Of a stretch of 64,000 nt of DNA, positions 4,652 to 10,571 are shown one piece after another (the first letter of the stretch is position 1; each line of letters starts with the position of its first letter). Origin of the DNA: Vulcanimicrobiota bacterium (GTDB lineage Bacteria; Vulcanimicrobiota; Vulcanimicrobiia; Vulcanimicrobiales; Vulcanimicrobiaceae); assembly GCA_003161435.1 (NCBI GenBank), contig PMOS01000027.1, positions 1 to 64,000 of the forward strand, read 5' to 3'. The translations under genes and the position numbers were made by a program. The notes beneath the pieces are model-generated. The model worked only from the letters and a program-made list of their open reading frames with translations, searched no databases and had not been told where the DNA came from.

Positions 4652-4699
4652 ACCGGCGAACCTAAAGTAAAGTGGGTCAGGTTTTGCCCGGCGTTAACA

Positions 4700-4704
4700 G
4701 CGTT
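4700..4704. repeat. target site duplication, right copy
   Basis: GCGTT directly after the right IS end, matching 2762-2766. Confidence 0.85.
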
Positions 4705-5207
4705 GGCGTTGGCCTCGGCGTTACAGTCGGATGCGTCATCGGCGCCGGGAGCATCGTGGGCAGATAAACTATCCGAGGCGGGGCGGTTGAAACGATGCTA
4801 GACGGCCCGCGCGGGGTACGCGTCGGCTTGGGCGACGGTGTGAACGAGGGCGTCGGCGTGGGCGTGGCTCCCTCATTGGCAGCGATTTTATCGGCCTCTG
4901 CCGGTTTTAGGACCGCGTAATCGGACACGGCAGCGACGGCGCCAGCGATAAAGAGCATGCAAAGAGTCGCGGCTATGCGGCGCTCCTTCTTGGACAACGT
5001 GAACGCCAAGCCAGCCGCACAAAAGACGATTAGAACTGACGTACAGACTAGGGCGATCGGCTGCCATGAGGGATGCATTGCGGTCGCTAGGGCGACGTAG
5101 AAAAAGAACCCGGCGAACAGAATGGCCCCGAGGCCAACGCCTTGCTTTTGGAGGTCGTCGAGGCCGCGCCACCACTCCGCAGCCTTGTGCAGCCATTCAG
5201 GCCCCAT
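4701..5207 (-). pseudogene. 5' half of an IS-disrupted membrane protein gene
   Basis: It starts MGPEWLHKAAEWWRGLDDLQ. Three hydrophobic segments follow (about residues 26-46, 52-70 and 80-97), then a Thr/Pro-rich tract (TPTPTPSFTPSPKPTRTP) that continues across the IS into the 3' half. With the IS in place translation runs a few codons into the element and stops at about 176 residues, so a truncated membrane protein without the C-terminal beta domain could still be made. Function unknown. Confidence 0.75.
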
Positions 5208-5280: not shown

Positions 5281-5316
5281 GGTATATCATCTTGACAACT
5301 GTCAGGATAATATACC
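5281..5316. promoter_or_regulatory. extended palindromic operator-like site, copy 2
   Basis: Outer arms GGTATAT (5281-5287) and ATATACC (5310-5316) share their centre with the inner arms TGACA/TGTCA (5293-5304), giving a 36-bp dyad with only two non-pairing positions plus a central AC. It lies about 50 bases before the transposase start at 5368. The left 26 bases closely match 8622-8648. The TTGACA inside has no -10 at proper spacing, so I read it as a protein-binding site and not a -35 box. Confidence 0.55.
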
Positions 5317-5367: not shown

Positions 5368-6417
5368 ATGGAAGCGGCAGTCCCCCGGACCCTCAAAGAA
5401 GCAGTCACCTACTTTGCCGACGACGAGACCGCCAATGGCTTCTTCGTTGCGATCCGCTGGCCCAACGGCGTGGCCTGCCCCCGCTACGGTTGCGGCTCAG
5501 CGAACGTCGTCACGATCAAGAACCGGAACGCCTGGCGCTGCCGCGAGTGCGGCCGGCACTTTTCGGTGAAGGTCGGGACCGTCTTCGAAGCCTCCCCGAT
5601 TGGCCTGGACAAGTGGCTCCCGGCCTTGTGGCTGCTCACCGCGAACCGCAACGGCGTCTCGTCCTACGAGCTAGGCCGCGCTCTTGGCGTCACGCAGAAA
5701 ACCGCGTGGTTCATGCTGCACCGCCTGCGCCTCGCGCTCAAGGAGGACGGTGCCCCAATACTATCCGGCGAGGTCGAAGCGGACGAGACGTTCATCGGCG
5801 GCAAGAAGAAAGGCCAAGGGCTTTTCACCAACGCGCTCGGCATGAAGAAGCTCGCGCACGGTCCCGCAACCGGCAAGGCGACGGTGTTCGGCATGGTGCA
5901 ACGCGGCAAGGACGGGAAGCCGTCACAAGTGCGCGCGATGGTCGTTCCGAATCACAAGGCGTCGACTTTGATTCCGAAGATTTACGAGAACATCGTGCCG
6001 GGTTCGACGATCTACACCGACGCGCTGCGTTCGTATCGCCAAGCGGACCGCGATTTCGTGCATGAGTTCATTGACCATTCCGTAGCGTACGTCAACGGCC
6101 GGATCACGACCAACCGGATTGAGAACTTCTGGTCGTGCGTCAAGCGTATGCTGCACGGCACTTATATCGCGGTTCGACCGTTCCACCTCGACGCGTACTT
6201 GGACGAGCAAGTGTTCCGCTTCAACGTCCGCGATCAGAAGGACGGCGCGCGGTTCGTCGCCGGACTCAAAGGCGCGGACGGTCGCCGCGTGACGTACGCG
6301 GTGCTCACGTCCTCGCATCCGTTGTGGCGGTTGCGTCCCGGCCGTGCCGCTCGCGCGGAAGCCCGTCGTCGCAAGCTGGACGAGACGCCGATTTCGGGAG
6401 TGAGCGACCGGCTCTAG
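5368..6417 (+). CDS. IS1595-family (ISXO2-like) transposase
   Basis: 349 residues. N-terminal zinc ribbon (CPRYGCGS ... WRCRECGRHFSVKVGT), then helix-turn-helix (SSYELGRALGVTQKTAWFML), then the ISXO2 catalytic core: EADETFIGGKKK, IYTDALRSYR and TNRIENFWSCVKRMLHGTY. These are the family acidic residues. I could not find convincing terminal inverted repeats around it, so it may be an end-degenerate or non-autonomous remnant, although the reading frame is complete. A strong palindrome lies just upstream. Confidence 0.9.
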   Translation: MEAAVPRTLKEAVTYFADDETANGFFVAIRWPNGVACPRYGCGSANVVTIKNRNAWRCRECGRHFSVKVGTVFEASPIGLDKWLPALWLLTANRNGVSSYELGRALGVTQKTAWFMLHRLRLALKEDGAPILSGEVEADETFIGGKKKGQGLFTNALGMKKLAHGPATGKATVFGMVQRGKDGKPSQVRAMVVPNHKASTLIPKIYENIVPGSTIYTDALRSYRQADRDFVHEFIDHSVAYVNGRITTNRIENFWSCVKRMLHGTYIAVRPFHLDAYLDEQVFRFNVRDQKDGARFVAGLKGADGRRVTYAVLTSSHPLWRLRPGRAARAEARRRKLDETPISGVSDRL

Positions 6418-8621: not shown

Positions 8622-8648
8622 AGTATATTAGCTTGACAACTGTTAAGC
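8622..8648. promoter_or_regulatory. palindromic operator-like site, copy 3, at the XRE-ribBA promoter
   Basis: GCTTGACA (8631-8638), central AC, TGTTAAGC (8641-8648): arms of 8 with one mismatch. The preceding AGTATATTA could be a -10 box. The segment closely repeats 5281-5306. It ends 22 bases before the start of a protein with its own XRE helix-turn-helix, the normal place for autoregulation. Function is inferred. Confidence 0.55.
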
Positions 8649-8670
8649 CCATCGGCGAGTCTTAGCAAGT

Positions 8671-10083
8671 ATGGAGCGGTTCGCGGATCAATTACAGGGG
8701 GCCATGGCCGATGCGGGGCTGACGGCGGCGCAGGTTGCTCAGCGGTCCGGGTTGACCGAGGCCGCGATCTCGCTGCTACGGAGCGGGCGGCGAGAGCCGT
8801 CGTACCGGACGGTCCGGGCCCTGTCGGCCGCGCTGCCGAGTCTGGGCGGCGTGGCTGTGGCTGAGCCAAGCGCGATGGACTCGATCGAGTCGGCGATCGC
8901 GGCCATTCGCGAGGGCAAGATGGTGGTCGTCATGGACGACGAGGATCGCGAGAACGAAGGCGACCTCGTGATGGCGGCCGAGAAGGTGACGCCCGAGGCG
9001 ATCAACTTCATGCGCAAGGAGGGCGGCGGCCTGATCTGCGTCCCGATGCTCTCCGATCGGCTCGACGCGCTGCAGATCCCGAACATGGTCAACGACAACA
9101 CCGCCCCGCTGGGCACCGCGTTCTCCGTATCCGTGGAAGCGCGGGGTCGCGTGACGACCGGCATCTCCGCGCAGGACCGTTCCAACACGATTCGCGCGCT
9201 GATCGACGTCAAGTCCGGACCGCGCGATTTCCTCAGACCCGGACACACGTTCCCACTCCGGGCTCGTGAGGGCGGCGTGCTCGTGCGCGCCGGCCAGACC
9301 GAAGCGTCGGTCGATCTCGCGAAGCTCGCCGGCTTGTATCCGGCCGGCGTCATCTGCGAGATCATGGACGAGGACGGGTCCATGATGCGCCGTGACAACT
9401 TGCGGCTGTTCTGCGAGAAGCACGGGCTGCGCATGATCACGGTCAAGGACCTGATCGCGTATCGCATGCGCCACGAGAAGCTCGTCGAGCGCATCGCGGA
9501 GTTCTCGCTGCCGACGACCAACGGAACGTTCCGCGGCATCGCCTACGAAACGAAGACCGACAAGACGGCGCACGTTGCACTCGTGATGGGCGAGATCGGC
9601 GACGGCAAGGACGTGCTCGTGCGCGTCCACAGCGAATGCCTTACCGGCGACGCGCTGCACTCGTTGCGCTGCGACTGCGGCTCGCAACGCGATGCCGCGC
9701 TAGCAGCGATCGCGCGTGAAGGCCGCGGCGTGTTCCTCTACCTCCACCAAGAAGGCCGGGGAATCGGGCTCGCCAACAAGCTCCGCGCCTACGCGCTGCA
9801 GGACGCCGGCGCGGACACGGTCGAGGCCAACACGTTGCTCGGCCTGCCCGCCGATAAGCGCGACTATGGCATCGGCTCGCAGATCCTGGTCGACCTGGGC
9901 GTGCGTGAGATGAACCTGTTGACCAACAACCCCAAGAAGATCGCCGGCCTCGAAGGGTTTGGTCTCACGATCAAAGCGCGCGTCCCGCTTCAGATCGCGC
10001 CGACGCAGCACAACGCGCACTATATGGAAACCAAGCGCGACAAGATGGGCCACATGTTCGGCGCCCCCAACCCCACCGAATGA
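8671..10083 (+). CDS. ribBA: XRE helix-turn-helix fused to RibBA (DHBP synthase / GTP cyclohydrolase II)
   Basis: 470 residues. Residues 7-57 are an XRE-type helix-turn-helix (LTAAQVAQRSGLTEAAISLL, then RREPSYRTVRALSAAL). A short linker leads to Met69, where RibB begins. RibB (about 69-270) has DDEDRENEGDL and makes 3,4-dihydroxy-2-butanone 4-phosphate from ribulose 5-phosphate. RibA (about 272-470) has the zinc site C-LTGDALHSLR-C-D-C and the GTP-binding HQEGRGIGL, opening GTP for riboflavin synthesis. The internal ATG at 8875 has no clear ribosome site, supporting translation as one fusion. ribH overlaps the stop by ATGA. A palindrome lies at the promoter. Ordinary RibBA lacks such a DNA-binding domain. 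Confidence 0.9.
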   Translation: MERFADQLQGAMADAGLTAAQVAQRSGLTEAAISLLRSGRREPSYRTVRALSAALPSLGGVAVAEPSAMDSIESAIAAIREGKMVVVMDDEDRENEGDLVMAAEKVTPEAINFMRKEGGGLICVPMLSDRLDALQIPNMVNDNTAPLGTAFSVSVEARGRVTTGISAQDRSNTIRALIDVKSGPRDFLRPGHTFPLRAREGGVLVRAGQTEASVDLAKLAGLYPAGVICEIMDEDGSMMRRDNLRLFCEKHGLRMITVKDLIAYRMRHEKLVERIAEFSLPTTNGTFRGIAYETKTDKTAHVALVMGEIGDGKDVLVRVHSECLTGDALHSLRCDCGSQRDAALAAIAREGRGVFLYLHQEGRGIGLANKLRAYALQDAGADTVEANTLLGLPADKRDYGIGSQILVDLGVREMNLLTNNPKKIAGLEGFGLTIKARVPLQIAPTQHNAHYMETKRDKMGHMFGAPNPTE

Positions 10084-10571
10084 AGACCGAGAAGAGCGCC
10101 GCGCTTCCGGACGCGAGCGGCAAGTCGTTCGCGATCGTCGTCGCGGACTTCTACGCCGATCTCGCCGCGCAGCTCGAGGATGGCGCGCGGCGCGGTCTGC
10201 GCGACTGCGGCGTCGACGATGCCGCGATCGAAACCGTGCGCGTCCCGGGCTGCTTCGAGCTCCCGCTTGCCGCGCGGCGGCTGATCGCCGGCGGTAAGCT
10301 CGACGGTGTCGTCGCTCTCGGTATCGTGATCCGCGGTGAAACGCCACACTTCGACTTCGTCGCCGGCGAGTGCGCGCGCGGGATCATGAACGTGCAGCTC
10401 ACCACCGGGATCCCGATCGGTTTCGGCGTGCTCACGACCGACGATCGACTACAGGCGGAAGAACGCGCCGATCCTGAACGCGGAGACAAGGGCTACGAAG
10501 CGGCCGTCGCTGCGGCGACGGTCGCGGTCATCGAGCCCAAGCGCGAGAGCGCCCGGATGGGTTTTCGCTAG
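10080..10571 (+). CDS. ribH: lumazine synthase
   Basis: 163 residues. Joins 5-amino-6-ribitylaminouracil with the 4-carbon product of RibB to give 6,7-dimethyl-8-ribityllumazine. Motifs: VPGCFELPLAARRL, ALGIVIRGETPHFDFVAGEC and a conserved GIPIGFGVLTTDDRLQAEERA end. The catalytic His is in PHFDFV. ATG overlaps the ribBA stop (ATGA), so both enzymes feeding this reaction are coupled. The C-terminus ends in a basic tail. Confidence 0.96.
   Translation: MKTEKSAALPDASGKSFAIVVADFYADLAAQLEDGARRGLRDCGVDDAAIETVRVPGCFELPLAARRLIAGGKLDGVVALGIVIRGETPHFDFVAGECARGIMNVQLTTGIPIGFGVLTTDDRLQAEERADPERGDKGYEAAVAAATVAVIEPKRESARMGFR

What the first reader, a model, noticed from the sequence alone, without database searches (positions are those of the whole stretch)
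8622..10083. XRE-type DNA-binding domain fused to the riboflavin enzyme RibBA
The 470-residue frame has an XRE helix-turn-helix at residues 7-57, a short linker and a full RibB-RibA. The internal Met69 where ordinary RibBA would start lacks a ribosome site. A palindrome fitting an XRE operator lies at the promoter, and ribH is translationally coupled. It could be a self-regulating riboflavin enzyme that senses its own substrates or product, or ribBA captured by the repressor gene of a mobile region. Known regulators such as archaeal RbkR join a DNA-binding domain to riboflavin kinase, not to RibBA, as far as I know.
Basis: partly seen in the sequence, partly recalled or inferred. Interest (0 to 1): 0.75.

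Follow-up and report, generated by a model that had tools for sequence, protein, structure and literature searches.

The report
Riboflavin enzyme carrying its own repressor
In one order of a mostly uncultured bacterial phylum, the enzyme that starts vitamin B2 synthesis is fused to a DNA-binding domain, and a conserved palindrome lies just before its own gene, so the enzyme is predicted to repress its own gene, which would make it a built-in regulator of vitamin B2 synthesis.

Summary
ORF 8671-10083 (470 aa) is an XRE helix-turn-helix plus a full RibB-RibA, and ribH overlaps its stop codon. The fusion is not an assembly error or a recent capture: it is seen in 87 of 92 genomes of its order (two families) that have a RibBA match; 4 cannot be told and 1 lacks the HTH. 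All 13 matches in the sister family of the class are unfused. The HTH is under purifying selection (median Ka/Ks 0.20). A palindrome, CTTGACA-NN-TGTYAAG, lies over the predicted -35 box, about 20 nt before the start. It occurs with at most 3 mismatches in 75 of 77 fused promoters (shuffled controls 0.3%) and in none of 13 unfused sister-family loci. With at most 1 mismatch, 44 of 54 sites in 61 family genomes are at ribBA. Two ribBA copies of the order that lack the HTH also lack the palindrome. Many relatives' genes look leaderless; the window's own genus less clearly. No FMN riboswitch was found in 149 genomes of the phylum. Best explanation: a trigger-enzyme-like autorepressor that sets RibBA-RibH dosage. 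Repression and ligand sensing are inferred, not shown. Some IS1595-type transposase genes beside ribBA carry the same palindrome.

The parts
8623..8631 (+). upstream box GTATATTAG flush with the operator (variable; role unknown)
   Evidence: A GTATATC-like box (at most 1 mismatch) lies within 14 nt upstream of the operator in 12 of 77 fused loci.
8632..8647 (.). predicted operator CTTGACAACTGTTAAG (palindrome CTTRACA-NN-TGTYAAG)
   Evidence: Exact and unique in the genome as held; at most 3 mismatches in 75 of 77 fused promoters, 0.3% of shuffles.
8633..8638 (+). predicted -35 box TTGACA inside the operator
   Evidence: Sequence; spacing to TA-N3-T hexamers in 60 of 77 fused loci.
8657..8662 (+). 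-10 candidate GAGTCT, 18-nt spacer, 8 nt before the ATG (weak; aligned with TAGTCT of relatives)
   Evidence: By eye; the window's genus lacks a TA-N3-T hexamer at this place.
8671..10083 (+). HTH-RibBA fusion gene, 470 aa
8677..8838 (+). XRE (lambda-repressor-like) HTH domain, residues 3-56
   Evidence: Pfam HTH_31 and HTH_3; helices H4-15, H19-26, H30-38, H45-54, H56-60 in the AlphaFold2 model; median Ka/Ks 0.20.
8839..8880 (+). linker, residues 57-70, variable
   Evidence: pLDDT under 50 at 60-67; pN/pS 0.52.
8887..9462 (+). RibB domain (DHBP synthase), residues 73-264
   Evidence: Pfam.
9487..10059 (+). RibA domain (GTP cyclohydrolase II), residues 273-463
   Evidence: Pfam and NCBIfam; C323, C334, C336 invariant in 62 fused proteins.
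10080..10571 (+). ribH (lumazine synthase), overlaps the ribBA stop codon
   Evidence: in 40 loci examined ribH is found downstream in 39, with a gap of -28 to +17 nt in 37 of these.
5283..5314 (.). extended copy of the operator palindrome in front of an IS1595-type transposase (5368-6417)

Best explanation
The gene encodes a riboflavin-biosynthesis enzyme (RibBA) with an XRE DNA-binding domain fused to its N-terminus, and the protein most likely represses its own ribBA-ribH operon by binding the palindrome that covers the predicted -35 box. Shown by the calls: the domain order, the conservation of the fusion across the order, the conserved palindrome just before the gene, and its absence in two ribBA copies without the HTH. 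Inferred: the HTH domains of a dimeric enzyme pair on the palindrome and block RNA polymerase, so that enzyme amount limits its own synthesis (negative autoregulation), with ribH co-regulated through the overlapping start. Inferred and less sure: occupancy by substrates (GTP, ribulose 5-phosphate) or a flavin changes DNA binding, as in trigger enzymes. The mRNA is predicted to be leaderless in most relatives and perhaps in the window.
For: Domain architecture (61 of 62 fused relatives match HTH_3). Fusion shown in 87 of 92 genomes of families f1+f2 with a RibBA match; f3 13 of 13 unfused, starting at the ordinary RibBA Met. Recognition-helix region nearly invariant and HTH Ka/Ks 0.20. Operator at most 3 mismatches in 75 of 77 fused promoters against 0.3% of 3,850 shuffles; best 5-7 mismatches in 13 f3 loci. 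The half-site that is no promoter element is conserved: of the 74 loci whose left half has at most 1 mismatch, 73 have at most 2 in the right half. 44 of 54 sites with at most 1 mismatch in 61 family genomes are at ribBA, 10 elsewhere; the reversed-pattern control gave 13 in total. HTH loss goes with operator loss: G031 keeps TTGACA-17-TAGCCT-6-ATG but not the right half-site; the second ribBA of G040 has a ribosome-binding sequence and no palindrome. No FMN riboswitch in 149 genomes.
Against: No binding, expression or transcript data exist here. Activation rather than repression is not excluded, although a site over the -35 argues against it. The HTH Pfam scores are modest (28-29 bits) and no ligand site was tested. 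Two fused loci (G025, G013) have 5 and 4 mismatches; they carry other palindromes at the same place, seen by eye. The palindrome contains the -35 box, so part of its conservation is promoter conservation. The 77 loci are related genomes, not independent cases. HTH loss is only two cases; G040 is 82% complete in about 540 contigs. 17 of 77 fused loci, among them all 9 of the window's genus, lack a TA-N3-T -10. The FMN riboswitch is absent from the unfused families of the phylum too, and delta-proteobacteria with ribD-ribE-ribBA-ribH also lack it (passage of PMC545781), so its absence is not specific to the fusion.
Confidence: 0.77

Rival explanations
1. The HTH is a conserved structural or oligomerisation appendage of RibBA, and the 'palindrome' is only a conserved strong promoter.
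For: The left half-site contains the -35-like TTGACA, and the enzyme domains are intact.
Against: The right half-site is no promoter element, yet 73 of 74 loci have at most 2 mismatches in it; it is gone where the HTH is gone while the -35 stays (G031); residues of the recognition-helix region are among the most conserved of the domain.
Confidence: 0.1
2. The protein is an activator or a regulator whose main targets are other genes (neighbouring IS1595 transposases or a wider regulon), not chiefly its own operon.
For: Transposase genes near ribBA carry the same palindrome in G000, G004, G008 and G065.
Against: Of 54 sites with at most 1 mismatch, 44 are at ribBA; the 10 others (about half of them near transposase genes) do not exceed the 13 of the reversed-pattern control.
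Confidence: 0.07
3. A mobile-element repressor gene recently captured ribBA.
For: The region upstream of ribBA in the window holds IstB (IS21) and IS1595 genes; no free-standing close relative of the HTH was found, so its origin is open.
Against: Fusion and operator were read in 77 loci of 32 genera in two families; the tree puts the genes of f1 and f2 together against f3, at moderate support (80/90).
Confidence: 0.03
4. Assembly or annotation artefact: two separate genes read as one.
For: The fusion is unusual, and a named record starts the protein about 10 residues late.
Against: No internal stop in the 30 rows that align over the whole protein (counted); a single-contig 3.5-Mb genome (G005) carries it; Met69 is not conserved.
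Confidence: 0.01

Closest known systems
Trigger enzymes with a DNA-binding domain, such as PutA of E. coli
   Same: A metabolic enzyme with a DNA-binding domain that binds only at its own gene region (between putA and putP) as repressor (passages of PMC8249747).
   Different: PutA uses another DNA-binding fold and pathway (recalled); ligand gating is not shown here; the domain is XRE-type on RibBA.
NadR of enterobacteria (N-terminal DNA-binding domain plus NAD-synthesis enzyme domains)
   Same: An N-terminal DNA-binding domain on a vitamin/cofactor enzyme, present in some relatives and absent in others (passages of PMC7221760).
   Different: NadR represses other NAD genes in response to NAD; here the predicted target is its own ribBA-ribH operon, and the enzyme is RibBA.
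Archaeal RbkR (HTH plus riboflavin kinase)
   Same: A regulator and enzyme of the riboflavin pathway in one protein with an N-terminal HTH (passage of PMC8305020).
   Different: RbkR carries a riboflavin kinase and is archaeal; here the enzyme is bacterial RibBA, the first committed steps. No riboflavin kinase domain was found in the window protein.
Wolbachia wBmxR1/wBmxR2, separate regulators that bind the ribA promoter
   Same: Protein regulation of a bifunctional ribA gene (passages of PMC3518464).
   Different: Separate proteins that activate a ribA reporter; not fused to the enzyme.
FMN riboswitch (RFN element)
   Same: The usual bacterial feedback device on riboflavin genes (passages of PMC12542839).
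   Different: RNA, not protein; not found in 149 genomes of this phylum.

Membership tests
RibBA (bifunctional DHBP synthase / GTP cyclohydrolase II) | RibB and RibA domains over the equivalog cut-off | tested here: met
   PRK09311.1 628.3 bits, cut-off 569; TIGR00506 and TIGR00505 over cut-off; model matches 4i14_B, TM (target) 0.91.
RibBA (bifunctional DHBP synthase / GTP cyclohydrolase II) | conserved catalytic residues (zinc cysteines of RibA; acidic loop, His and Glu of RibB; the roles are recalled) | tested here: met
   C323, C334, C336; R93, E94, E96, D98, H192, E211 invariant in 62 fused proteins.
XRE (Cro/C1-type) HTH | Pfam match over the gathering score | tested here: met
   HTH_31 29.1 bits (27) and HTH_3 28.3 bits (23) in the full protein; five helices in the model.
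XRE (Cro/C1-type) HTH | sequence-specific binding to a palindrome | not testable with these tools
   Only the conserved palindrome and its joint loss with the HTH.
Trigger enzyme (DNA-binding type) | DNA-binding domain on an intact metabolic enzyme | tested here: met
   Domains and conserved residues by sequence; activity itself not tested.
Trigger enzyme (DNA-binding type) | controls transcription of its pathway or own gene | tested here: inconclusive
   Operator at its own promoter across the order; no expression data.
Trigger enzyme (DNA-binding type) | DNA binding depends on substrate or product | not testable with these tools
   No call bears on it.
RbkR | riboflavin kinase domain | tested here: not met
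   Pfam and NCBIfam list no riboflavin kinase domain.
NadR | NMN adenylyltransferase and ribosylnicotinamide kinase domains | tested here: not met
   No such domain listed.
FMN riboswitch control | RF00050 upstream of rib genes | tested here: not met
   0 of 149 genomes, stricter filters, 20 candidates scored in each of the 20 genomes listed; the control rings in 7 of 14; none in the window at gathering score.

The most novel reading that the evidence does not exclude
HTH-RibBA is a one-protein riboflavin sensor, enzyme and repressor: the first enzyme of the pathway reads its own substrate or flavin occupancy and switches its own leaderless promoter, doing with one protein what other bacteria do with the FMN riboswitch, and IS1595 transposons next to it have borrowed the same operator so that a vitamin enzyme silences them.
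Probability: 0.3. Interest if true: 0.8.

Novelty: new variant of a known kind. Interest (0 to 1): 0.64.

Why it matters
Riboflavin genes in bacteria are known mainly for RNA control. If confirmed, this is a protein-based, self-contained control of the first committed riboflavin enzymes in a whole order of Vulcanimicrobiota (Eremiobacterota), with a cultured species (Vulcanimicrobium alpinum) in which it can be tested. It would extend trigger enzymes to a new pathway step and give one answer to how bacteria without detectable FMN riboswitches control flavin synthesis. The operator is short, defined and conserved, so one gel shift decides the main claim.

Tried and rejected
Recent capture by a mobile repressor: rejected, because the fusion is order-wide. 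Two genes joined by error: rejected. Wider regulon including ribDE: not supported, since the operator is exact only once in the own genome and sites away from ribBA do not exceed the control; ribE itself was not found in the own genome (83% complete), G001, G002, G020, G040, G054 or G055, of 50 searched; ribD was not searched. Fusion in other phyla: 80 of 589 confirmed loci from genome contigs were kept; 10 of them have an extension over 25 aa before the match counted from the first start codon, and all 10 extensions were scanned with Pfam without any match; L024 has a stop just before an ordinary RibBA start; the other 509 loci were not seen. f3: 8 of 13 N-terminal stretches were scanned with Pfam: no HTH, one weak TrbK hit under its cut-off; the other 5 are short and were read by eye. 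Stand-alone relatives of the HTH: 11 hits, 10 with a DHBP domain; the eleventh (P0130, 87 aa) reads like a frame-shifted fusion. G017 first looked unfused, but its contig ends there; G109 has only the first 44 residues at a contig end and was moved from fused to cannot-tell on recount. The IS1595 link was followed only in part: 30 transposase copies with 5' DNA were read, fewer than the rows; 5 of 30, in G000, G004, G008 and G065 (two), carry the palindrome, all within about 4 kb of ribBA, and 25 do not; the distance of the 25 from ribBA was not tested, and whether the element took the operator from ribBA is not settled. The tree has open forks and only moderate support for the f1+f2 clade (80/90) and for the place of G031 (84/87, 87/82).

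Full report
What is there. The frame 8671-10083 encodes 470 residues: an XRE-type HTH (Pfam HTH_31 3-55, HTH_3 15-55), a variable linker, RibB (73-264) and RibA (273-439). The RibBA part passes the NCBIfam equivalog PRK09311.1 (628.3 bits, cut-off 569). The AlphaFold2 model (62 sequences, mean pLDDT 81, pTM 0.65) gives five helices for residues 4-60, a low-confidence linker (60-67), and a RibBA body that matches the Mycobacterium tuberculosis structure 4i14 (TM by target length 0.91 for chain B). By sequence the nearest solved HTH chains are phage-type repressors, weakly (best E 0.0016, an immunity repressor). Residues that I recall as catalytic are invariant in 62 fused proteins. ribH overlaps the stop codon. 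In 40 loci read, 39 hold ribH downstream on the same strand, 37 of them with a gap of -28 to +17 nt.

It is a conserved fusion. In 149 genomes of the phylum, 123 have a match. Families f1 and f2 (one order) have 92 genomes with a match: 87 show the HTH joined to RibB in one stretch, one (G031) has only an unfused gene, and four cannot be told (G017, cut by the contig end; G109, only the first 44 residues and a C-terminal piece; G060 and G121, C-terminal pieces). Twelve more f1/f3 genomes in the listing had no match, mostly incomplete ones. The 13 matches in f3, the other family of the class, start near residue 69 with MPLATIEEA-like sequence and show no HTH. A tree of the RibBA part separates f3 (13 rows, 100/99) from the f1+f2 genes (30 rows, 80/90, moderate), so the fusion most simply arose once at the base of this order. 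A search with residues 1-75 against 5.8 billion proteins gave 231 hits, of which the best 120 are listed; all 120 carry the DHBP_synthase domain. Where the organism label can be read there, it is Candidatus Eremiobacteraeota or Vulcanimicrob-; many labels are cut at 'Cand', and two begin Alphapro- and Gaie-. The 3,508,363-base contig of G005 has the length given for the Vulcanimicrobium alpinum protein P0069, so the cultured type species very likely carries it. None of the 80 kept loci from genome contigs, nearly all from other phyla, showed the fusion (80 of 589).

The HTH is under selection. In nine members of the genus the median Ka/Ks is 0.20 for residues 3-56, 0.29 for the linker (22 of 36 pairs usable), 0.105 for RibB and 0.10 for RibA. 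The stretch T-E-x-A-I-S-L-L-R-S-G-R-R holds many of the invariant or nearly invariant columns of the domain.

The operator. 77 fused promoters (76 genomes, 32 genera) were searched for CTTGACA-NN-TGTYAAG: the mismatches are 0 in 31, 1 in 27, 2 in 14, 3 in 3, 4 in 1 and 5 in 1. Shuffles of the same upstream DNA that keep its dinucleotides (50 each) reach 3 or fewer in 0.3%. In 13 f3 loci and 3 unfused loci of more distant families the best is 5-7. The rows are related genomes, so these counts are not independent; by genus, 27 of 32 have all members at 2 or fewer. In 61 family genomes 54 sites with at most one mismatch exist. 44 of them lie 20-62 nt upstream of the aligned start of ribBA, in 43 genomes, and 10 elsewhere, while the reversed pattern gives 13. 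In the own genome the site is exact only at 8632-8647. The palindrome covers the predicted -35 box, where a bound dimer is expected to block RNA polymerase (recalled for lambda-type repressors).

Leaderless start. 60 of 77 loci have TA-N3-T at a spacing of 16-18 after the -35 position, followed 3-9 nt later by an in-frame ATG or GTG (57 of the 60 at 6-8 nt). That leaves no room for a ribosome site and predicts a transcript starting at or next to the start codon. The 17 others include all 9 loci of the window's own genus, where a GAGTCT- or AGTCTTAG-like sequence stands in that place, so for the window the prediction is weaker. The public V. alpinum protein (P0069) begins at an internal ATG, 10 residues after the start seen in the G005 DNA.

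Two natural controls. G031 (96% complete) has a RibBA without HTH and keeps the promoter TTGACA-17 nt-TAGCCT-6 nt-ATG, but its right half-site is gone (best 6 mismatches). It is nested among fused genes in the tree (84/87 and 87/82, moderate). G040 (f2, 82% complete, about 540 contigs) has a fused N-terminal piece with operator on one contig (L194) and a second, unfused ribBA on another, behind a gene that reads like an old-yellow-enzyme (by eye, recalled), with a ribosome-binding sequence and no palindrome (best 5 mismatches). Its RibBA groups with the f2 fused gene (100/100). So both HTH-free copies of the order lack the operator.

Context. No FMN riboswitch was found in 149 genomes (0 of 149; control 7 of 14; stricter filters), and none in the window at gathering score. 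This holds for the unfused family too, and delta-proteobacteria with a ribD-ribE-ribBA-ribH cluster are also reported to lack it (passage of PMC545781), so the fusion did not demonstrably replace a riboswitch. ribE lies upstream of ribBA on the same contig in many relatives; in f3 it ends within about 50 nt of ribBA, or overlaps it, in 9 of 13 genomes and lies about 0.6-0.7 kb before it in the other 4. The ancestral order was thus probably ribE-ribBA-ribH, with an own promoter for ribBA in this order (inference).

Mechanism. The best-supported reading is negative autoregulation: the enzyme, likely a dimer, binds the operator and limits transcription of ribBA-ribH. This is inferred from anatomy and conservation; binding, sign and ligand response are untested. 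Ligand gating by GTP, ribulose 5-phosphate or flavins is plausible by analogy with trigger enzymes (PutA, passages of PMC8249747) and NadR (passages of PMC7221760).

Known or new. RbkR (passage of PMC8305020) joins an HTH to riboflavin kinase and is a different enzyme. Separate regulators act on ribA in Wolbachia (passages of PMC3518464). The V. alpinum description does not mention riboflavin (term search in PMC9758169). In the held library, 'RibBA' with 'XRE' gives no paper; the listings show no paper on such a fusion by title or start of abstract. Subscription papers are mostly not held, so this is not proof of absence. I file it as a new variant of a known kind: it would work like a DNA-binding trigger enzyme, with one membership feature (ligand dependence) untestable here. 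On recount for this report 88 became 87 (G109) and 31 became 30 rows without stops; the odds did not change.

Noticed in passing
window 5283-5314 and 5368-6417; L214 (G008), L258 (G004), L213 (G065): IS1595-type transposase genes close to ribBA carry an extended copy of the ribBA operator (TATATCATCTTGACA-NN-TGTCAAGATGATATA type) centred about 70 nt before their start; in G008 and G004 transposase and ribBA diverge from one shared palindrome. 25 of 30 transposase copies read lack it.
   Followed up: partly
L252 (G065:C22) near 1667; L253 (G008:C2) near 1568: Further copies of the extended palindrome lie beside membrane-protein-like frames (300 and 423 codons, by eye), within about 1.5 kb of transposase pieces; possibly passenger genes of the element.
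   Followed up: partly
L193 (G040:C136) 566-1749: A second, unfused ribBA behind an old-yellow-enzyme-like gene (by eye), with a ribosome-binding sequence and a GTG start.
   Followed up: partly
P0069 (Vulcanimicrobium alpinum, 460 aa): The public protein starts 10 residues downstream of the start seen in the G005 DNA and cuts into HTH helix 1.
   Followed up: yes
window 4677-5207 (-): A 176-codon frame, membrane-like by eye, with a proline/threonine-rich tail, divergent from the transposase across the palindrome.
   Followed up: no
genomes G000, G001, G002: No ribE match in these three members of the genus although the other eight searched have it; the three genomes are 74-86% complete.
   Followed up: no
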